DNA of 64,000 nt, from positions 3,782,001-3,846,000 of the forward strand of contig JAKSGN010000006.1 in assembly GCA_024180945.1 (NCBI GenBank), read 5' to 3'. A model generated the notes under the pieces. The model had not been told where the DNA came from, did no database searches, and saw only the letters and a list, made by a program, of their open reading frames with translations. Below, one piece after another: positions 40,062 to 49,101 of this stretch. Source of the stretch: Macrophomina tecta. Taxonomy: Eukaryota; Ascomycota; Dothideomycetes; Botryosphaeriales; Botryosphaeriaceae. The translations under genes were made by a program, and so were the position numbers. How positions within the stretch are numbered: the stretch's first letter is position 1; each line of letters starts with the position of its first letter.

Positions 40062-40220
40062 TATTGAACTTGGTGGAAAAATTAATAAGATTCTCGGTAA
40101 TAGACAGGAATAAGAAGGGGTGCCCTCTTATATCCGTACCACTAACGCTAGCTATACTACTAAGACACTTGTAAAGCTAACTAGTATAGTTATAACGCTC
40201 GTAAAACCGCTATTCCAACA
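40062..40220 (-). repeat. 3' LTR of outer copia-type element
   Basis: 159 bp, left copy. It carries all six TpG-to-TpA differences relative to the right copy. The minus-strand end reads CAATA instead of the expected CAACA. Confidence 0.88.
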
Positions 40221-40631: not shown

Positions 40632-40636
40632 ATAAG
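40632..40636. repeat. Target site duplication ATAAG (inner element, left)
   Basis: ATAAG precedes the left 436-bp LTR and recurs at 48275-48279 after the right LTR. Confidence 0.9.
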
Positions 40637-41072
40637 TGTAACGAGCGGGCCTCTGCCTCTAAGGATCCAAACACCAAAGAGGGAGAAAACCTGTCGAGGG
40701 GGTTTTCCTTGAGTGGGTACAAGAAGAGGGTGAGAGCAAGTCGAGCACGTGATGAGACTGAGCACTGCGTGCGAAGGCCGTGTTACTAACAATGTGCTGA
40801 ATTGTTATTGAAGTTGACCACGAAGGTCAAAGCTATCTAAGGAGTGTGGTTTATATACAAGTAGGAAAGTGTATACAATCTAGTGGTGCTGTTGCGAGCC
40901 CAGCTCCAGAGGGCTCGAGGTGAGCCGTTGTGAGCCCGGCTCGTAAGGGCTCGGTGGGTCCGTCCTTGGGTACTCACGTGCTGAGCCACGTGATTCCCTC
41001 TTTTCTTTGGAGTTCCCCGCAGAACGTCCTTTCCTTCCTTATTCCCTATACTGTGGAGGCTGCGCCGTAACA
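40637..41072 (-). repeat. 3' LTR of chromovirus
   Basis: 436 bp. On the minus strand it begins TGTTAC and ends GTTACA. It matches the right LTR except at position 40995. Confidence 0.95.
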
Positions 41073-44000
41073 CTATCCCCCCTTTTAGGATCTTCGGCCC
41101 GAAGATTTTCCTTGCGCGGCTATATCTTTTCGTTCCGTGGGGTTCCTGTGTCATTTCTCGTTGTAGGTCCTCATCATGCCGCCCAAACGTCCTCTTACTG
41201 ACAGTTTTGAGCCTTCTGCCAAGCGGCCGCATCGTACCACAATACGTCGTCGGGACTTGTTGCGTCGCATTCTCCGGGACGGCGTGGAGATGATTCCTTG
41301 TACTCACTGCCTGGAGCACCATACCGTGTGCTTTGCCTTGGAGGATGATCCCTCTGTTTGTGGCGCCTGCTTGAAGGCGCGTCGCACGGGTTGCGATGTT
41401 GCGGAAGCAAGTGCCTCGGGTTGTAGGTGTCGCATTATTCCGTTTTGTTCTCCTGACTGACTTTCGCAGTGGATCGTTTGGACCGGGAGTTCGATCGTAT
41501 CGCTGCCGAGGAAGATGCCACTCTGGAGAAGTTGGTGCGTCTGCGCAAGCAGCGCCGCTTCCTTCAGGAGCGTAGGTCCAAGATGATTCGGCAAGGGTTT
41601 GCATCGTTGGAAGAGTTGGAGAAGGCCGAGGCGTCCAGTTCGCCTGGGGGTCTTTCTGACCCTGAGAGTTCTGAGGGTCGGTCCTCGTCAAAACGGCCAC
41701 GTCACGAGTCGGTGGATCCTGCTGCGCCGCAGGCTGATCGTGCCGGTTCTGCCGGGGAACCTGCGCCGGATGCGAGGTCTCCGCGTTCTCCCGAACCTGT
41801 GAATCTTGCTCGTTTGTCTCAGTTTGCGACGGATCCGCTGGTTCTCGAAGGTTTTCCGTCGTTCTCATTCGGGGACGACCTCGTCTCCGTGGGAGGTCAG
41901 GATTTTGGCGATGGAATTCTGTGACCAGGTCTGGGTGTATGTCGTCTTTTGGCACCCACTGGTTGTCTTCGTTCCCGTATCCTTCCCATTTGACGAGATA
42001 TTTGAGCTGACGACCGAACCGTTTGCAGTCTAGAATCTTCTCGACTGGGTACTGGTCTTCTTCGGCGTCAGGGTTTTCCGGTATAATCTCTTCCTGAGTT
42101 TCTGGGATGGTGGCGTTTTCTGGTGCTGGCTCGAGCATCGCCACGTGAAAGGTGGAATTCATCCGTGTGTTAGGCAATTTGAGTCGATACGTGACTTCTC
42201 CGAGTTTTTCTGCAATTTCGAATGGACCGATTTTCTTGAAATCCAATTTGTCGCTCGGTCGTTTTGATTTGATGTTTTTCGTGAGGAGGTACACTTTATC
42301 CCCCCTTTTAAGGTTCGGTGCCGCCTGGTGCCGTTTGTTGTAGTATTTGGACATCATAATTCGTACATATTCGAGGTCGAGACTGATGGCTTTGTGCAAT
42401 CCTCTTAGCTGCTCGGCTTTGAGAACGCCTTTTTGGGCCAATTTCCTGCTTGGGATGGCCTCTCTATACGCGTCTGGTTCGAACCCATAGTTGGCAAAGA
42501 ACGGGGATACGTTGGTTGACTCTTGTTTGGCGCTATTATAGGCGAACTGTGCCATGGGTAGCCATGTGGCCCAGTCATCCTGTGGGTAGTTGATGTAACA
42601 GCGGAGATATTGTTCGAGAGTCCGGTTCATCCGTTCCGTCTGACCGTCGGTTTGCGCGTGTGCTGTTGTAGAGAGTTTGTTCTTTGCTCCAAGCTGGCGC
42701 ATAAGCGTTTGCCAAAATTCAGATCTCATCAGCTTGTCCCTGTCCGAAACCAATACTTCCGGCATTCCGTGATCCGCGAAGATGTATCGGAGAAACGTGT
42801 GGGCTAGCTGTTCTGCATTCGATGCCTCTAGGTAGGGCAAAAAGCATGCGTACTTCGTGAGTCTGTCGACAAAGACTAGGATCGAGTCGTACTTGACTCC
42901 TGTGAGCGGATCTCTGGACTCTGGCAGCTTCGTGATGAAGTCTAGTGTGATCCATTGCCATGGTCGTTCTGGTACTTCCAGGGGTTGTAGTTGTCCGTAC
43001 GGAGCGTGTGTTGCGGCTTTGCTTCGGATGCAAAGGTCGCATTGCGAAACTATACGCTGGACCATTTTCCGTAATCCTGGAAAGTAGAAGTTTTGCGTGA
43101 TCCTCTCGGTCGTTCTGTCGATGCCCTGATGTCCATGCGCGGGTGCTACGTGCATGTCCTTGACGAGTGCTTCTCGCAGTCTTGTCGGGACATAGATTAA
43201 TCCTTTGAAGAGAAGCGTTCCTTCTCTATCTCGAGCAACACGCGGGTCGTCCTCAAGCGCTAAAAGTTCCTGCGCGAAGGAGTCCTGAGCGTATGCTTCT
43301 CGGATTTTCTGATGCCACGGGTTTGACTCGATGCGAAGCATTGGGAAAGACTGTCTGGCGAGGGTGAGCGATCCATCGCTTGTCCACTGCAATACTGCAG
43401 GTTGCGGCTCGATTCTTCCTTCCATGTAGTCTACCCTCCTGCTGAGCGCGTCAGCGGCGGCGTTATCTACACCTTTTCTGTGTGTGATCTTGAAATTGTA
43501 GGATGCCAATTCTTGTGACCAGCGAACCTGTCGTCGGTTCAGCTCCTTGGTCGTGGTGAAGCGTGTGAGATTCTGATGGTCACAATGCACTATCACCTGT
43601 TGGTCGGCTCCTTCTAGGTAGTGTCTCCAGTGCTTGAATGCTGAGACGATAGCCAAGAGCTCTTTGTCATGAGTGTCGTAGTTGAGCTCTGCCGGGGTGA
43701 ACTTTCTTGAGTAGAACGCGATCGGATGCCATCTGCCTTCATCGTCAGGCTGGCTGAGACATGCTCCTAGGGCGAATCCTGACGCATCAGTTTCTACTTC
43801 GATCGGTTTGTCGGGATCGTATATCCCTAAGACGGGTGCTTCGCAAAACATCCTCTTCAGCGAATCGAAGGCTTGCTGCTGATCGTCTCCCCATTGGAAG
43901 CCATGCTCCTTCTGAGTGAGTCGCGTTAAAGGTTCCGTGACCTTTGAATAGTTCCAGATGAACTTCCTGTAGAAGTTTGCGAACCCAAGGAAGGACTGTA

Positions 44001-45867
44001 CTTCCTTGATCGTCTTTGGTACTGGCCATTCCCTGATGGAATCCAGTTTCGAGTCGTCCATACCGACGTGTCCGGGGGTGATGATAAAGCCTAAGAATTC
44101 TGTTCTTTGTACGTGCCATTCGCATTTCTCTGGTGCGATAGACAGATTCTTTGCTTGGAGGGTTTCTAGGACCTTTCTGACATGCTTCTTGTGTTCCTCG
44201 AGTGTTTCCGAGAAGATGAGGATATCGTCGAGGTAAGCCATGCAGAAGATATCTAAGTAGTCGCGCAGCGTGTCGTTGACGAGATTCTGGAAGGTTGCTG
44301 GCGCGTTGGTAAGCCCGAATGGCATAACCGTGTACTCGTAGAGTCCTAGCCTCGTTCGGAAAGCTGTCTTCCACTCTTCCCCTTCTTTGATTCTGACCAA
44401 GTGATATCCGTCCCGGAGGTCCAGCTTCGTAAAGTACTTCGCGTTCCCTAACTTGTCCTGGAGCTCGTCAATGCGCGGGAGCGGGTATCGGTTCTTGATC
44501 GTGATATCATTGAGCTGTCGATAGTCGACACAGAGGCGTAACTTGCCATTCTTTTTGGGGACGAAGAGGATCGGATATCCGGCGGATGACGTTGATGGCC
44601 GAATGTATCCTCGTTCGAGGTTCTTCTCGATGTATTCCCTCAAAGCCTCCATTTCCTTCTTCGATAAGGAGTAGATGGGCTTATAAGCCGGCTTCGTTCC
44701 TGGCCTGAGCGGAATCTCGTGGTCCCATGGTTGATGTTTGGGCAAGTCTCCCTTTCCTCTTTCTTGGCAAACGGCAACTAAGTCCCAATACTCTTCGGGT
44801 ACCGTTTCCATTTCTGGGATTGGAGGTGTTCCTTGTGGTTGCTGCCGCATCTCCAAACTACCGTGTTGTCCCCTTTTGATCCTCGCAGGATCGTCTCCTC
44901 CGATGGGAGTTGGACAGTCCTCATCCTTTGGCCTTTCCCGTTGGGCCCTGGCCAGTGCTCTCTGTTGCACCTGGGTTTCGGGAATACTTGACTCGGTAGG
45001 GCTTACTCCGCTTGAGGCGCTGCATTTTACCGAGGAGGCGGCGTTTTGCACGCTGCAGTCCTGGTCCTGTCTTAGGCCATCCTCAAGGTTGCCGTTGATG
45101 CTGCCGTCACTGGGCCTTACGCCATCGTTTGAGTCTTGCGTTTCTTCTGATGATTCGAGGGTATCGTTTCGCTCAGTAGGGCTTATTCCTGCGATAGGGT
45201 TGCATTTTACCGAGGAGGCTTCGCCTTCTGCGCCGCAGTCCTGGTTCTGACTTACACCACTATCGGAGTTGCCTACACAGTCGCCACGTTCAGGCCTTAC
45301 ACTGGCTACTTCCCGATTCATAGTAGGCAAGAGTCGCTGTAGGGTGTTCATTAACCCGTTTTCCATGCGTAACCCGAATTTTCGTAGGAGGTCGTCGATC
45401 TCTTCTCGAAAAACGATTTCGTCTCCTTCGCTGAAGTCGAAGATAGGTTTCTGGGTTCGGATCCAGGGCATACCTAGAATGATGTCGTGCCCGGGGATGC
45501 GTTGGACGTCGAGAGAGATCTGTTCCTGATGGTTTTTGATTTGGAGGGTTGCTTCCTCCGTTTCTATCTTTACCCAGCCTTCTCCGTAGACTGAGCTTTT
45601 CCCGTCGAATCCGCTGAGCGGATATGGCTCTTTCTTTTTTCGGTATAGGATCTTGCACTGTTCCACAAACTCGTTGTGTATAAAGTTTCCGCTCGACCCT
45701 GTGTCGATCAGTATCGAGATGGGACGTCCGTTGAGCGTTCCTTTCGTTTTGAATTGTCTCCAAAGATTTGGTCCGGTGAGAATTCCCGTATTCGATGTGC
45801 GTGATACCATGTGAAGGGACCTAGACTGTGGCCCCTGGGTCGATCCCAATGCCGTAGGGCCGTCTAG
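40837..45867 (-). CDS. pol: Chromovirus Pol polyprotein (PR-RT-RNaseH-IN-chromodomain), expressed by -1 frameshift
   Basis: Open from the gag/pol frameshift site to a stop inside the 3' LTR, about 1676 codons. No ATG is needed; the frame continues from gag. Residue numbers count from the TTG at 45849. Protease: DTGSSGNF at 50-56. A 60-residue unit in the linker is duplicated. Reverse transcriptase: VDYRQLND near 441 and AYLDD at 538-542. RNase H: VETDASG with Asp688. Integrase: zinc ligands His900, His907, Cys937, Cys940 and catalytic Asp970, Asp1036, Glu1072 (in DGQTERMNRTLEQ). Chromodomain: about 1265-1316 (VEKILDCKRFG, YLVKWEGYGNEDNQWVP), which in chromoviruses guides integration to marked chromatin. 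After it some 350 residues of tail remain open, lying opposite the plus-strand gene and passing through the polypurine tract; the true C-terminus is uncertain. Confidence 0.93.
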   Translation of the reverse strand, partial: LDGPTALGSTQGPQSRSLHMVSRTSNTGILTGPNLWRQFKTKGTLNGRPISILIDTGSSGNFIHNEFVEQCKILYRKKKEPYPLSGFDGKSSVYGEGWVKIETEEATLQIKNHQEQISLDVQRIPGHDIILGMPWIRTQKPIFDFSEGDEIVFREEIDDLLRKFGLRMENGLMNTLQRLLPTMNREVASVRPERGDCVGNSDSGVSQNQDCGAEGEASSVKCNPIAGISPTERNDTLESSEETQDSNDGVRPSDGSINGNLEDGLRQDQDCSVQNAASSVKCSASSGVSPTESSIPETQVQQRALARAQRERPKDEDCPTPIGGDDPARIKRGQHGSLEMRQQPQGTPPIPEMETVPEEYWDLVAVCQERGKGDLPKHQPWDHEIPLRPGTKPAYKPIYSLSKKEMEALREYIEKNLERGYIRPSTSSAGYPILFVPKKNGKLRLCVDYRQLNDITIKNRYPLPRIDELQDKLGNAKYFTKLDLRDGYHLVRIKEGEEWKTAFRTRLGLYEYTVMPFGLTNAPATFQNLVNDTLRDYLDIFCMAYLDDILIFSETLEEHKKHVRKVLETLQAKNLSIAPEKCEWHVQRTEFLGFIITPGHVGMDDSKLDSIREWPVPKTIKEVQSFLGFANFYRKFIWNYSKVTEPLTRLTQKEHGFQWGDDQQQAFDSLKRMFCEAPVLGIYDPDKPIEVETDASGFALGACLSQPDDEGRWHPIAFYSRKFTPAELNYDTHDKELLAIVSAFKHWRHYLEGADQQVIVHCDHQNLTRFTTTKELNRRQVRWSQELASYNFKITHRKGVDNAAADALSRRVDYMEGRIEPQPAVLQWTSDGSLTLARQSFPMLRIESNPWHQKIREAYAQDSFAQELLALEDDPRVARDREGTLLFKGLIYVPTRLREALVKDMHVAPAHGHQGIDRTTERITQNFYFPGLRKMVQRIVSQCDLCIRSKAATHAPYGQLQPLEVPERPWQWITLDFITKLPESRDPLTGVKYDSILVFVDRLTKYACFLPYLEASNAEQLAHTFLRYIFADHGMPEVLVSDRDKLMRSEFWQTLMRQLGAKNKLSTTAHAQTDGQTERMNRTLEQYLRCYINYPQDDWATWLPMAQFAYNSAKQESTNVSPFFANYGFEPDAYREAIPSRKLAQKGVLKAEQLRGLHKAISLDLEYVRIMMSKYYNKRHQAAPNLKRGDKVYLLTKNIKSKRPSDKLDFKKIGPFEIAEKLGEVTYRLKLPNTRMNSTFHVAMLEPAPENATIPETQEEIIPENPDAEEDQYPVEKILDCKRFGRQLKYLVKWEGYGNEDNQWVPKDDIHPDLVTEFHRQNPDLPRRRGRPRMRTTENLREPADPSQTETNEQDSQVRENAETSHPAQVPRQNRHDQPAAQQDPPTRDVAVLTRTDPQNSQGQKDPQANWTPRPSPTLPTMQTLAESSWTYAPEGSGAACADAPTSPEWHLPRQRYDRTPGPNDPLRKSVRRTKRNNATPTTRGTCFRNIATRATRLQAGATNRGIILQGKAHGMVLQAVSTRNHLHAVPENATQQVPTTYCGTMRPLGRRLKTVSKRTFGRHDEDLQREMTQEPHGTKRYSRARKIFGPKILKGGIVLRRSLHSIGNKEGKDVLRGTPKKRGNHVAQHVSTQGRTHRALTSRAHNGSPRALWSWARNSTTRLYTLSYLYINHTP
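41077..41086 (-). other. Polypurine tract of chromovirus
   Basis: Minus strand AAAAGGGGGG, four bases from the 3' LTR; the expected plus-strand DNA primer. Confidence 0.85.
41176..41924 (+). CDS. Antisense accessory gene of chromovirus: Zn2Cys6-like cluster plus coiled coil
   Basis: On the strand opposite gag-pol, between chromodomain and polypurine tract. Exons 41176-41422 and 41470-41924 with a 47-bp intron (GTAGGT donor, CTGAC branch, CGCAG end) give 233 residues. Cys42, 45, 52, 62, 65 and 73 have spacing C-x2-C-x6-C-x9-C-x2-C-x7-C, inside the fungal Zn2Cys6 consensus, although the usual basic residues between the second and third cysteine are absent. A basic N-terminal patch (TTIRRRDLLRR) precedes it. 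The intron joins it to a charged coiled coil (residues 83-135, LVRLRKQRRFLQERR), then a Ser/Pro-rich linker with SSKRPRHE, and an acidic, aromatic C-terminus. The layout resembles a small transcription factor. I recall similar cysteine-plus-coiled-coil proteins as repeated unnamed proteins in fungal genomes, but cannot name a family. Function unknown. Confidence 0.7.
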
Positions 45868-45873
45868 TTTTTT
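45821..45873 (-). promoter_or_regulatory. -1 programmed ribosomal frameshift signal at gag/pol junction
   Basis: Minus strand A AAA AAC (45873-45867) in the gag phase GCA AAA AAC, followed at once by the gag stop TAG (45866-45864). Pol lies exactly in the -1 frame and is open from the shift. Five bases downstream a hairpin can form: GGCCC (45861-45857) with GGGCC (45834-45830), enclosing TGGG/CCCA. The spacer TAGAC and GTCTA (45826-45822) can extend it across a small bulge. Heptamer, spacer and stem match the known design of -1 frameshift sites. Confidence 0.88.
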
Positions 45874-47747
45874 GCTAAGTGTTGGCGGGCTATTTCCTCG
45901 TAGAAGTAGAGGTCCCAGTCCTCAGCCGGGGTCGGCAATTCCTTCCACTGTGTCCAGTGTCCGCGCCTGATGAGGCGCCTCCAGTGGATTCGGTCATTGC
46001 AGACCTGGTATTCGAAGGTAGGCATGGCATATTTCTCCTTCGGGACCCATTGCAGGGTATTCTGCACCCTTGTTGCTGTTCCGTACAGGCCGAGGGTTAA
46101 CGCCATGCTACGCAAATGCGCGAGGTCCCGTTGCTGCTGTACTCCCCGGGCCTCATCTTCGAGCCAGGACGCTACTTCGTCGGCCGAGGCGAGGGGTGAT
46201 TCCTTCCAGGGGTGCCACATGCCACCTTCGTAGAATCGAGAGCTGAGCTTTCCCTTCCACACCTGATATTGCTGTGGTGGTAGGTCTATCCTTGATCCGG
46301 GGGTCCAGTTGATTGTCGGGGCAAGGCTGGGTTCGACACGCCTCGTGTCCCCGTACCTGCTCAAGTGTTCCGTGATTCGGTCGAGCATGGCTTGGTCCTG
46401 CCATTGTTCTGTGTTCCCGGCTTCGCTGGACTCGGGGGTGCTATCGTAGAGTTCGCCTGTGTCGCTGTTGACTAGCTCGTCGTCGTAGGGGAAGTCGTCG
46501 ATCAAGTCGTCGATTTCTAGTACTTCCTCGTTCCTAGTCATCATGCCAAATTGTCGAGGTTCGTGAGGGTACCATCCTGATATGTCCTTGCTGCTTTGGT
46601 GCGTTTGACAGTCATCGTTGTAGCAGGCTGTCCAGTGCAGCGTATCGTGGTTGTCTTGGCGGGATGCAACCGATGCTTCGCGCTGAGCGCTCGAGGTCTG
46701 CTTCTCCTCCTTTTTGTTGCGAGGGTTCTGCGGGCACTTGGGAGAGAAGTGCTTGTCACTGCCGCAGGTGATGCAGAGTCGATCCTTGTAGCGCTGCTTC
46801 TGCTCGTCCGTCCAATTTGGGTTAGGTCCTTTGGGCTTCTTGTTGTTGTTTCGACCCTTATTCCCTTTCTTGTCGTCTTGGCGGTTGGCGGCGTCTAAAG
46901 CCATAGCATCTCCTCCTTCCAACGTGGTGCGTTCTCGGCGTGGCTTGGTCGTGTTTGCTTGGTAGCCACCCTTTTTCTCGAACCACCTGTTGGTGCGTCT
47001 TCTGTCCATATCGGTAGCCAGGCGGATCAGTTCCGGGAGTGTTTCTGGTTCGTCGTGGTAGGACATGGCCTCTTTGATCTCGTCCTTCAGGCCGCGGTAG
47101 TACAGCTGTCGGAGCGTGTAGTCTGAGTGCTCTCCGGCGACGTAGGCTGCTTCTTGGAATTCGGCCGTGTAGTCGAGTACGGACTTTTTCTGCTGAATCC
47201 TGAAAAGGATCTGATTGGCGCGCTTGGCCTCGTCGATGGCACTGAAAGCGTCCTGCAGTTGTTTGGCGAATGTCCTGTAGTCGGAGAAGATGGCCTGGGT
47301 CTGAGGCGACCATTGCCATTGCGGCTTTTCTTGGGTCTCTCGTTTATAAGGTCTGAACCACTTTTCTGCTGCTCCTCGGAGGAAGGTACTGGCGTAGCGA
47401 ACCTTGTCTGCGTCGTTGCCGAATTGTCCTTTGGCGAAGTGCAGATAGTCTTCCAGCTGCATGAGGAAGCTCTGCGTCTTGGTACGCTCTCCGTGGTAAA
47501 GGTCCGGCTTCGGCACCTTGACCTTAGTGGTTGGGTCCCTTGCAGGGCTTGGCCCAGTGGTTTGATCCTGCCGACCCCTCAGGACGAGATTCTCGGCTCG
47601 TAGTTCCTGAATCATCTGCATGAGTTCTCTCATGGTGGGCTCCGTTTGCTCCTGTCGAGCGGGCTGAGGGGGCCCGGGAGTCGGTGTGTGAGGAACTGCT
47701 GGACGATCTTGTCCCGCGCTGATGTCCTCCATGTTGACCGAGTCCAT
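45864..47747 (-). CDS. gag: Chromovirus Gag
   Basis: 627 residues with ATG at 47747. It forms the capsid of the retroelement particle. Residues 35-60 are a predicted short coiled coil (MRELMQMIQELRAENLVLRG). The retrotransposon gag core follows (residues 80-250, including FLRGAAEKWFRPY and LRQLYYRGLKDEI). One CCHC zinc knuckle (Cys325, Cys328, His333, Cys338; CITCGSDKHFSPKC) lies after a Lys/Asn-rich stretch. The roughly 280 residues beyond the knuckle are acidic and Trp-rich (WHPWKES, RGHWTQWKELPTP), longer than in simple Ty3 elements. The frame ends ARQHLAKN at the frameshift heptamer. Confidence 0.93.
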   Translation of the reverse strand: MDSVNMEDISAGQDRPAVPHTPTPGPPQPARQEQTEPTMRELMQMIQELRAENLVLRGRQDQTTGPSPARDPTTKVKVPKPDLYHGERTKTQSFLMQLEDYLHFAKGQFGNDADKVRYASTFLRGAAEKWFRPYKRETQEKPQWQWSPQTQAIFSDYRTFAKQLQDAFSAIDEAKRANQILFRIQQKKSVLDYTAEFQEAAYVAGEHSDYTLRQLYYRGLKDEIKEAMSYHDEPETLPELIRLATDMDRRRTNRWFEKKGGYQANTTKPRRERTTLEGGDAMALDAANRQDDKKGNKGRNNNKKPKGPNPNWTDEQKQRYKDRLCITCGSDKHFSPKCPQNPRNKKEEKQTSSAQREASVASRQDNHDTLHWTACYNDDCQTHQSSKDISGWYPHEPRQFGMMTRNEEVLEIDDLIDDFPYDDELVNSDTGELYDSTPESSEAGNTEQWQDQAMLDRITEHLSRYGDTRRVEPSLAPTINWTPGSRIDLPPQQYQVWKGKLSSRFYEGGMWHPWKESPLASADEVASWLEDEARGVQQQRDLAHLRSMALTLGLYGTATRVQNTLQWVPKEKYAMPTFEYQVCNDRIHWRRLIRRGHWTQWKELPTPAEDWDLYFYEEIARQHLAKN

Positions 47748-47838: not shown

Positions 47839-48274
47839 TGTAACGAGCGGGCCTCTGCCTCTAAGGATCCAAACACCAAAGAGGGAGAAAACCTGTCGAG
47901 GGGGTTTTCCTTGAGTGGGTACAAGAAGAGGGTGAGAGCAAGTCGAGCACGTGATGAGACTGAGCACTGCGTGCGAAGGCCGTGTTACTAACAATGTGCT
48001 GAATTGTTATTGAAGTTGACCACGAAGGTCAAAGCTATCTAAGGAGTGTGGTTTATATACAAGTAGGAAAGTGTATACAATCTAGTGGTGCTGTTGCGAG
48101 CCCAGCTCCAGAGGGCTCGAGGTGAGCCGTTGTGAGCCCGGCTCGTAAGGGCTCGGTGGGTCCGTCCTTGGGTACTCACGTGCTGAGCCACGTGATCCCC
48201 TCTTTTCTTTGGAGTTCCCCGCAGAACGTCCTTTCCTTCCTTATTCCCTATACTGTGGAGGCTGCGCCGTAACA
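47839..48274 (-). repeat. 5' LTR of chromovirus, with promoter
   Basis: 436 bp. A TATATAA box lies at 48059-48053 on the minus strand. A hairpin TTGACC-TTCGT-GGTCAA follows at about the expected transcription start. Confidence 0.95.
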
Positions 48275-48279
48275 ATAAG
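48275..48279. repeat. Target site duplication ATAAG (inner element, right)
   Basis: Matches 40632-40636. Confidence 0.9.
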
Positions 48280-48942: not shown

Positions 48943-49101
48943 TATTGAACTTGGTGGAAAAATTGATGAGATTCTCGGTGATAGACAGGAATAAGAAGGG
49001 GTGCCCTCTTATATCCGTGCCACTAACGCTAGCTATACTACTAAGACACTTGTGAAGCTAACTAGTATAGTTATAACGCTCGTGAAACCGCTATTCCAAC
49101 A
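48943..49101 (-). repeat. 5' LTR of outer copia-type element
   Basis: 159 bp, right copy, keeping TG at the six sites that read TA in the left copy. Confidence 0.88.

What the first reader, a model, noticed from the sequence alone, without database searches (positions are those of the whole stretch)
41176..41924. Retrotransposon carries a spliced antisense gene with Zn2Cys6 spacing and a coiled coil
Directly seen: on the strand opposite gag-pol, after the chromodomain, two frames join through a 47-bp GT-AG intron into a 233-residue protein. Its six cysteines fit C-x2-C-x6-C-x9-C-x2-C-x7-C, the spacing of fungal binuclear zinc clusters, and a charged coiled coil follows, as in Gal4-type regulators. 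Ty3/gypsy elements normally encode only gag and pol. Inference: the element may carry its own regulator, acting on its LTR, on antisense control or on host genes. The weak point is the lack of the usual basic residues between Cys2 and Cys3.
Basis: partly seen in the sequence, partly recalled or inferred. Interest (0 to 1): 0.8.

Follow-up and report, generated by a model that had tools for sequence, protein, structure and literature searches.

The report
Retrotransposon antisense regulator with matching LTR sites
A fungal jumping gene carries, on its opposite strand, a small spliced gene for a likely DNA-binding protein, and both that protein and the repeated short sites in the element's own control region switch together between otherwise near-identical copies, which suggests that the element brings its own private switch.

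Summary
On the strand opposite gag-pol, exons 41176-41422 and 41470-41924 join through a 47-bp GTAGGT...CTGAC...CAG intron into 233 aa with C-x2-C-x6-C-x9-C-x2-C-x7-C. Against a divergent copy, indels are multiples of three, dN/dS is 0.26, and the wobble class shifts at the intron. It is a relative of BRTN, the known antisense gene of Botrytis Boty elements; the family profile's nine best PDB matches are Zn2Cys6 regulators, though Pfam's cut-off is not met.

Beyond the finding: in this genome, elements with pol 96-98% identical carry at least five antisense-gene types (A-E). The zinc and coil halves differ between types, and so does a U3 block about 30 bp from the TATA-like box. Each block holds a type-specific pentamer array: two modules of opposed direct pairs (0 of 110 shuffles, 0 of 110 tandem-module nulls and 0 of 322 host segments reach any of the five scores). 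A second element family gave two more types: one fits the pattern, one has a different array.

Best reading: a self-encoded dimeric regulator of its own LTR, co-diversifying with its sites. Binding, expression and direction of effect are untested.

The parts
41176..41422 (+). Antisense gene, exon 1 (basic N-terminus and six-Cys zinc cluster)
   Evidence: Open frame, conserved in own-genome copies and the P0001 relative; wobble-class excess at class 0
41299..41394 (+). Zn2Cys6-like cluster, residues 42-73
   Evidence: Pattern; PDB profile; model and fold search of the relative P0001; profile comparison
41423..41469 (+). Intron, 47 bp, GTAGGT...CTGAC...CAG
   Evidence: same junction in P0001; equivalent 44-47 nt introns can be read in types B-E
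41470..41924 (+). Antisense gene, exon 2 (long helix about residues 80-124, then acidic/aromatic tail)
   Evidence: Helix in the P0001 model; tail charge; wobble-class excess at class 2
40637..41072 (-). 3' LTR of the element (TG..CA)
47839..48274 (-). 5' LTR of the element
40886..40952 (.). Type-A U3 array: eight half-sites related to GAGCC as two modules of two opposed direct pairs, 10-bp spacing
   Evidence: Score 37/40, 0 of 110 shuffles and 0 of 110 tandem nulls, 0 of 322 host segments; coordinates
48088..48154 (.). Same array in the 5' LTR
40848..40857 (-). TATA-like box of the sense promoter (TATATAAACC on the element strand), 3' LTR copy
   Evidence: function inferred
48050..48059 (-). 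TATA-like box, 5' LTR copy
   Evidence: function inferred
40837..45849 (-). pol open frame (protease, RT, RNase H, integrase, chromodomain, then a tail overlapping the antisense gene)
45864..47747 (-). gag
41073..41089 (-). Polypurine-tract-like sequence next to the 3' LTR
   Evidence: Sequence; function inferred
40632..40636 (.). Target site duplication ATAAG (other copy 48275-48279)
   Evidence: Read from the flanks printed

Best explanation
The gene is a member of the BRTN family of antisense genes of fungal chromoviruses. It encodes a small dimeric DNA-binding regulator: a Zn2Cys6-type cluster, a coiled coil for pairing and an acidic, aromatic tail. I propose that the protein binds an array of paired pentamers in U3, just upstream of the sense TATA-like box of its own LTR, and so controls transcription of gag-pol and perhaps, from the 3' LTR, of itself. 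The zinc half, the coil and the array have changed together into specificity types while pol stayed nearly constant. Shown here: the gene, its selection, its family, the arrays and their co-variation. Inferred: zinc binding, dimerisation, DNA binding, and that the array is the target. Direction of effect is open: I favour activation (acidic tail, UAS-like position) at about 60:40 over repression (copy-number or immunity-type control) or anti-silencing.
For: Selection: dN 0.25, dS 0.96, ratio 0.26 over 230 codons against L020, the other frames of the same aligned codons 0.40-1.40; indels of 6, 21, 3 and 6 nt; substitution excess moves from class 0 to class 2 across the intron (p 0.022, 0.001). 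Antisense to pol in 23 of 23 loci with a pol match, 30 examined of 44 matches. Domain. Types: five proteins with six Cys and a 44-47 nt intron at the same place on elements with pol DNA 96-98% identical. U3: the LTR part with the TATA-like box is 93-98% identical between types over 192-255 bp; of the rest only 20-39 bp beside the polypurine tract match. Arrays: 37, 33, 40, 35, 38 of 40 for A, E, B, C, D; best of 1100 nulls 32, best of 322 host segments 32, best of 35 gag-pol segments 30. Out-of-sample type H of another element family: 35/40, 0 of 150 shuffles. U3 and exon-1 types agree in 36 of 36 assignable loci of 38 (details in the report). Between two type-C variants with zinc exons 67/70 identical, 0 of 30 half-site bases differ against 19 of 90 others (Fisher 0.0033).
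Against: No expression or binding data for this gene. Array and gene lie about 0.2-0.3 kb apart, so co-variation could be plain linkage; the 36 loci are not independent and four are the type references themselves. Type G does not fit the pair grammar (30/40; 3 of 150 shuffles reach 30), although it has GGATCA five times, four at exact 17-bp steps. Simpler counts are weaker: pentamer repeat pairs in the U3 blocks exceed shuffles, but 7%, 20% and 5% of 322 host segments reach the counts of A, E and B, and E's commonest pentamer is not above shuffles (P 0.25). CGG triplets, the usual Zn2Cys6 half-site (recalled), are not enriched in the LTR. Type A has no basic residue between Cys2 and Cys3. Pfam cut-off not met. 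The grammar was seen by eye on the five types before it was scored on them; only G and H are out of sample, one for and one against. The two modules are partly tandem duplicates. B and C, 44% alike in the zinc half, differ in spacing (8 and 18).
Confidence: 0.6

Rival explanations
1. The antisense protein is a real DNA-binding protein, but the U3 arrays are sites for host transcription factors; the protein acts elsewhere (host promoters, or steering the integration complex), and array and gene change together only because they are neighbours.
For: Gene and array are adjacent; gag also varies between types, so divergence is not confined to U3 and the antisense gene; B and C are fairly alike in the zinc half yet differ in array spacing.
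Against: Half-site and spacing change with the zinc and coil halves while the neighbouring LTR part stays 93-98% identical and the intervening 5' UTR stays alike (78-90% by a gapped alignment that can overstate); two pairs of closer zinc clusters have alike half-sites (A/E GAGCC and GTCGC, same 10-bp spacing; G/H GGATCA and GGATA).
Confidence: 0.22
2. Repressor or immunity-type control: the protein shuts down its own LTR, and new types spread because resident copies cannot repress them, as with phage immunity regions. (A variant of the best explanation, with the sign reversed.)
For: Pol constant and regulator plus sites variable is the pattern expected; several types have multiple identical exon-1 matches: A 5, B 13, D 5.
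Against: Acidic aromatic tail, net negative in 58 of 58 family members examined, looks more like an activator; the phage parallel is recalled.
Confidence: 0.25
3. The function is antisense RNA (double-stranded RNA with the pol 3' end, small RNAs); the protein matters little.
For: Convergent arrangement; small RNAs from retrotransposons studied in Botrytis (PMC8365987, passages).
Against: Purifying selection on amino acids, frame kept across the intron, six Cys kept through 19-56% identity between types.
Confidence: 0.07
4. Chance open frames opposite pol.
For: The pol frame is also open across the region, so opposite frames can be open together.
Confidence: 0.01

Closest known systems
BRTN, antisense gene of Boty-like elements (Botrytis, Sclerotinia; Zhao 2011, cited in PMC7264820 and PMC8365987; original not held)
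   Same: Antisense, downstream of pol of a chromodomain Ty3/gypsy element (PMC7264820 and PMC4227169 passages); homologous protein: P0034, named 'Putative BRTN', is in the family recovered, E 9.6e-28.
   Different: This host is a Dothideomycete (taxonomy, host inferred); zinc exon and coil exon are separated by an intron; 0 basic residues in the C2-C3 loop; U3 arrays and types are described here and I saw no report of them for Boty in the passages read.
Zn2Cys6 (PF00172) regulators such as GAL4, PUT3, LEU3, HAP1
   Same: Cys spacing, two short helices after the CxxC motifs in the model, long helix after the cluster; best PDB matches.
   Different: Below Pfam's cut-off; longer C3-C4 loop than the 30 domains of this genome listed; basic loop missing in type A; encoded by a retroelement.
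VANC proteins of Arabidopsis VANDAL transposons (PMC5735166, passages)
   Same: Element-encoded proteins and their short tandem target motifs evolve together and differ between related elements.
   Different: DNA transposons (recalled), anti-silencing action; no sequence comparison made here.
crapaud of Podospora (PMC10787394; abstract, sections 8 and 12, passages)
   Same: LTR retrotransposon with 14 subfamilies differing mainly in U3 while the internal region does not follow them; reason left open.
   Different: A figure legend names two ORFs (gag and pol); the word antisense occurs 0 times in the main text.
HTLV-1 HBZ and plant antisense ORFs of Grande and Retand (PMC11963269 and PMC7264820, passages)
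   Same: Antisense gene next to the 3' LTR encoding a likely nuclear, regulatory protein.
   Different: No homology was seen or tested; HBZ details beyond these passages are recalled.

Membership tests
BRTN antisense genes of Boty-like elements | Homology to BRTN | tested here: met
   Profile of P0016, the type A and E proteins and P0001 recovers P0034 'Putative BRTN' at E 9.6e-28; a family profile without P0001 scores type A 118.7 bits
BRTN antisense genes of Boty-like elements | Antisense to gag-pol, between chromodomain and 3' LTR | tested here: met
   23 of 23 loci with a pol match, 30 examined
BRTN antisense genes of Boty-like elements | Carrier element belongs to the Boty lineage by pol | not tested
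   No Boty pol sequence was at hand
Zn2Cys6 (PF00172) | Six Cys with CX2CX6CX5-12CX2CX6-8C (spacing recalled) | tested here: met
   6, 9, 7
Zn2Cys6 (PF00172) | Score over the curated Pfam cut-off | tested here: not met
   10.4 bits against 21; 30 of 55 family members match at E up to 1, best 0.001; of types B, C, D only D matches, 12.5 bits
Zn2Cys6 (PF00172) | Fold of the zinc cluster | tested here: inconclusive
   First 19 of 21 Foldseek matches are Zn2Cys6 proteins, but E 0.37-4.7; best structural Z to one of them 4.3; the model is of the relative P0001
Zn2Cys6 (PF00172) | Basic residues between Cys2 and Cys3 | tested here: not met
   0 in type A; 30 domains of the same genome have 3-6
Zn2Cys6 (PF00172) | Binding of two zinc ions and DNA | not testable with these tools
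   Needs biochemistry
Ty3/gypsy chromovirus | RT-RNase H-integrase order and chromodomain, LTRs | tested here: met

The most novel reading that the evidence does not exclude
Fungal chromoviruses carry a swappable specificity module: an antisense-coded Zn2Cys6 dimer and its own operator array in U3. Half-site and spacing co-evolve with zinc cluster and coil, so that elements sharing one pol split into mutually insulated regulatory types, comparable to phage immunity types. This would also explain unexplained U3 subfamilies such as those of crapaud.
Probability: 0.45. Interest if true: 0.87.

Novelty: new variant of a known kind. Interest (0 to 1): 0.76.

Why it matters
Antisense genes of LTR retrotransposons have been known in plants and in Botrytis for years without a function (PMC7264820, sections 5 and 7), and U3 diversification of a fungal retrotransposon has been described without a settled cause (PMC10787394, section 8). 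The arrays link the two: they name, for each antisense protein, the pentamer, the spacing and the place where it should bind. An open question becomes a simple binding experiment with built-in cross-controls (protein A on array B, and the reverse).

Tried and rejected

Selection effects to keep in mind: the 55 rows of alignment A4 were chosen from 108 database proteins largely because they show the six-Cys pattern (67 of the 108 do; 58 of 75 of at least 160 aa), so invariant Cys columns there are by construction. Searches scored only the best 7997 and 7995 candidates. Genome DNA searches score only the best 40 candidates, so copy numbers are lower bounds. The half-site positions used for the L082/L016 comparison were chosen by me from the type-C array.

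Full report
What is there. The window holds a recent Ty3/gypsy chromovirus on the minus strand. The LTR repeat differs at one base in 439; read as TG..CA its copies are 40637-41072 and 47839-48274, and the target site duplication is ATAAG. gag and pol are open frames, pol with protease, RT, RNase H, integrase and chromodomain. On the plus strand, between chromodomain and 3' LTR, lies the gene of the finding. The genome (54 Mb, 37 contigs, unnamed) looks like Macrophomina: the closest database protein, MPH_01402 of M. phaseolina MS6, is 94-95% identical over 131 aa and reads across the same splice junction. That identification is inferred.

Is it a gene. The region has at least 40 matches in the genome. 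Of 11 divergent copies compared, 10 carry an excess of C-to-T/G-to-A changes with CpA the commonest context, as RIP leaves; L020 does not (68 against 63 in the reverse direction). Against L020 the antisense frame shows dN 0.25, dS 0.96, ratio 0.26 over 230 codons, no stops in either copy, while the other five frames of the same aligned codons give 0.40 to 1.40 with 1-17 stops. All four indels are multiples of three (6, 21, 3, 6 nt). The substitution excess sits at position class 0 in exon 1 (44/82 against 31/83 and 22/82) and at class 2 in exon 2 (53/149 against 25/148 and 27/149), which is the shift the intron demands; neither is the pol wobble class. In 30 loci examined (of 44 matches), pol was found in 23 and ran opposite to the antisense gene in each. 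Expression is not tested; a Monilinia transcript similar to both truncated Pol and BRTN is mentioned in PMC5987419 (passage), strand not stated there.

What family. Three protein searches led from Macrophomina and Botryosphaeria to a family of roughly 190-aa proteins in Botrytis, Sclerotinia, Monilinia, Lachnellula and others (Leotiomycetes, recalled), among them P0034, named 'Putative BRTN', and P0033, whose cluster name reads 'Zn(2)-C6 fungal-ty...'. brtn is the antisense gene of Boty-like retrotransposons (Zhao 2011, seen only as cited in PMC7264820 and PMC8365987; the paper is not held). Of 108 database proteins collected, 67 carry the six-Cys pattern, 58 of 75 among those of at least 160 aa. 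Pfam's Zn_clus is matched in the right place but under its cut-off (10.4 against 21 bits for exon 1; 30 of 55 members at E up to 1; of types B, C and D only D). A profile of the family has GAL4, PUT3, LEU3 and LAC9 as its nine best PDB matches, E 0.011 to 0.93. A model of P0001 with the family alignment (mean pLDDT 84, zinc region 84-91) has a short helix after each CxxC and a 45-residue helix after the cluster; the first 19 of 21 Foldseek matches are Zn2Cys6 proteins, none with E under 0.3. Profile against profile, the family scores 19.7 with 30 Zn_clus domains of this genome; 30 controls with the Cys columns kept reach at most 15.4, 30 fully shuffled ones 17.5. I take the cluster as a divergent Zn2Cys6 relative.

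Beyond the finding: types. A pol search found many copies with pol DNA 96-98% identical whose antisense region did not match the window over exon 1. Reading such loci gave three more antisense genes, types B (L081, L085), C (L082) and D (L083, L084); L020 is type E. All have the six Cys in exon 1, a possible 44-47 nt intron at the same place, and a coil in exon 2. For B the search listed longer introns first; I took the 47-nt one, which joins at the M that starts the database relatives P0002 and P0015. Identity of N-terminus plus cluster is 56% for A/E, 44% for B/C and 19-38% for the other pairs; tails are 29-78% identical. Exon-1 matches at 100% number A 5, B 13 and D 5; three type-C matches have equal scores. 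So the elements share pol but differ in the DNA-binding half of the antisense protein.

Beyond the finding: U3 arrays. Between types the LTR has a constant part that holds the TATA-like box, 93-98% identical over 192-255 bp; of the block between it and the polypurine tract, only the last 20-39 bp match between some types. The 100-bp 5' UTR of the antisense gene is alike again (78-90% by gapped alignment). Each variable block starts 24 nt from the TATA element with an array of one pentamer. Type B has GTTCA eight times without a mismatch, as four direct pairs spaced 8 bp, with alternating orientation. A has GAGCC (spacing 10), D TGCTC (9), C TCAGT (18) and E GTCGC-like (10). I scored the pattern 'direct pair, opposed direct pair, repeated' out of 40: A 37, E 33, B 40, C 35, D 38. 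Per type 0 of 110 dinucleotide shuffles and 0 of 110 nulls that keep the tandem duplication reach it, the best null being 32. Of 322 host segments of the window the best scores 32, of 35 gag-pol segments 30. Simpler counts are less telling: pentamer repeat pairs exceed shuffles in all five, but 7%, 20% and 5% of the host segments reach the counts of A, E and B. The pattern was noticed on these five types first, so they are not an independent test.

Out-of-sample test. A second chromovirus family, with 48% amino-acid identity to the window's pol over the compared 170 residues, has two antisense types, G (L093) and H (L094), with pol pieces identical at 179 of 190 residues. Their LTRs align in one 798-bp match at 79%; a stretch beside the TATA-like box is diverged, and so is a second stretch further up in U3. 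H fits the pattern, 35/40 with 0 of 150 shuffles. G does not (30/40, reached by 3 of 150 shuffles); it has GGATCA five times, four of them exactly 17 bp apart, a count that 4 of 1000 shuffles reach. One for, one against the exact pattern; both have an array in the predicted place.

Linkage. Of 38 loci, 36 could be assigned a U3 type and an exon-1 type. In 35 the best types agree; in L089 a type-A LTR lies in the locus as well and type C is the second match, in agreement with its type-C exon. Four of the 36 are the reference loci themselves, many others are related by descent, and gene and array are neighbours, so this is weaker than it looks. Two mosaics show that other parts do exchange: L016 joins type-C U3, zinc and coil to a tail that reads like the window's from residues ADRAG on, and the window's gag is 100% identical over 1201 bp to two elements that carry type-C genes by position; the other type-A copies are not among the gag matches listed (40 scored of 171 candidates). 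Between L082 and L016, whose zinc exons are 67/70 identical, 0 of 30 half-site bases and 19 of 90 other bases of the block differ (Fisher 0.0033); L016 also fits the pattern, 35/40, 0 of 150 shuffles.

How it most likely works. A dimer held by the coiled coil would place two zinc clusters on a direct pair; four such dimers would sit upstream of the sense TATA-like box, in the position of an upstream activating sequence. In Zn2Cys6 regulators the cluster reads the half-site and linker plus coil set the spacing (recalled); here both halves of the protein and both features of the array change together. The tail is acidic (net negative in 58 of 58 family members examined, mean -8.2 in the last 60 residues; -6 in type A) and has W or F in the last 45 residues in 58 of 58, as activation regions often do (recalled). 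I therefore favour an activator of its own LTR at about 60:40 over a repressor or an anti-silencing factor. A repressor would explain the splitting into types more readily, as in phage immunity. No step from binding onward is shown.

Place in what is known. It is a member of the BRTN family by homology and by position. It works like, but is not shown to be related to, VANC of VANDAL elements, whose proteins and tandem target motifs evolve together (PMC5735166, passages). The U3 pattern resembles crapaud, whose 14 subfamilies differ mainly in U3 for an unsettled reason; the word antisense does not occur in that paper's main text (PMC10787394, abstract, sections 8 and 12). In the listings I saw no title or abstract that describes an antisense zinc-cluster gene paired with LTR arrays; most subscription papers are not in that library, the Boty paper among them.

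Noticed in passing
40837-41907 (-): The pol frame stays open for about 356 codons past the chromodomain, through the whole antisense gene and into the 3' LTR; it is open across the antisense gene in L020 too. With random synonymous codons it would be open in 0.2-4.5% (window) and 0.04-0.6% (L020) of simulations, by codon table. Unexplained.
   Followed up: partly
46200-47400: The window's gag is 100% identical to two elements that carry type-C antisense genes by position, so this element looks like a mosaic.
   Followed up: partly
L016 (G000:C36:242283-245629): Natural mosaic: type-C U3, zinc exon and coil joined to a type-A-like tail.
   Followed up: partly
L093, L094: A second chromovirus family of the same genome has BRTN-like antisense genes of two types with different U3 arrays.
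   Followed up: yes
G000:C18:699602-703235 (L005, L010): A type-A copy is interrupted in exon 2 by an insertion of about 2.7 kb; the two parts of the match overlap by 9 bp, as a 9-bp target duplication would.
   Followed up: no
L004 (G000:C31:7661-11592): A 31-bp insertion that repeats the neighbouring sequence shifts the antisense frame in exon 2 of an otherwise identical stretch.
   Followed up: no
40746, 40975, 40987: Three CACGTG palindromes in one LTR, against 16 in the whole window; ACGTG also recurs in the U3 of the other types.
   Followed up: no
40062-40220 and 48943-49101: A 159-bp direct repeat, 96% identical, flanks the element outside its LTRs; the element may sit inside another repeat.
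   Followed up: no
45021-45093 and 45201-45273: A 73-bp direct repeat (75%) in pol, 5' of the RT.
   Followed up: no
P0004 (Botryosphaeria dothidea SLS57_006002): A database gene model joins an NmrA-like part (PF05368) to a BRTN-like coil and tail, probably a retrotransposon piece fused into a gene model.
   Followed up: no
L095 (G000:C1:324900-326900): An old copy with a degenerate zinc region, whose coil and tail are nearly the annotated protein MPH_13986.
   Followed up: no
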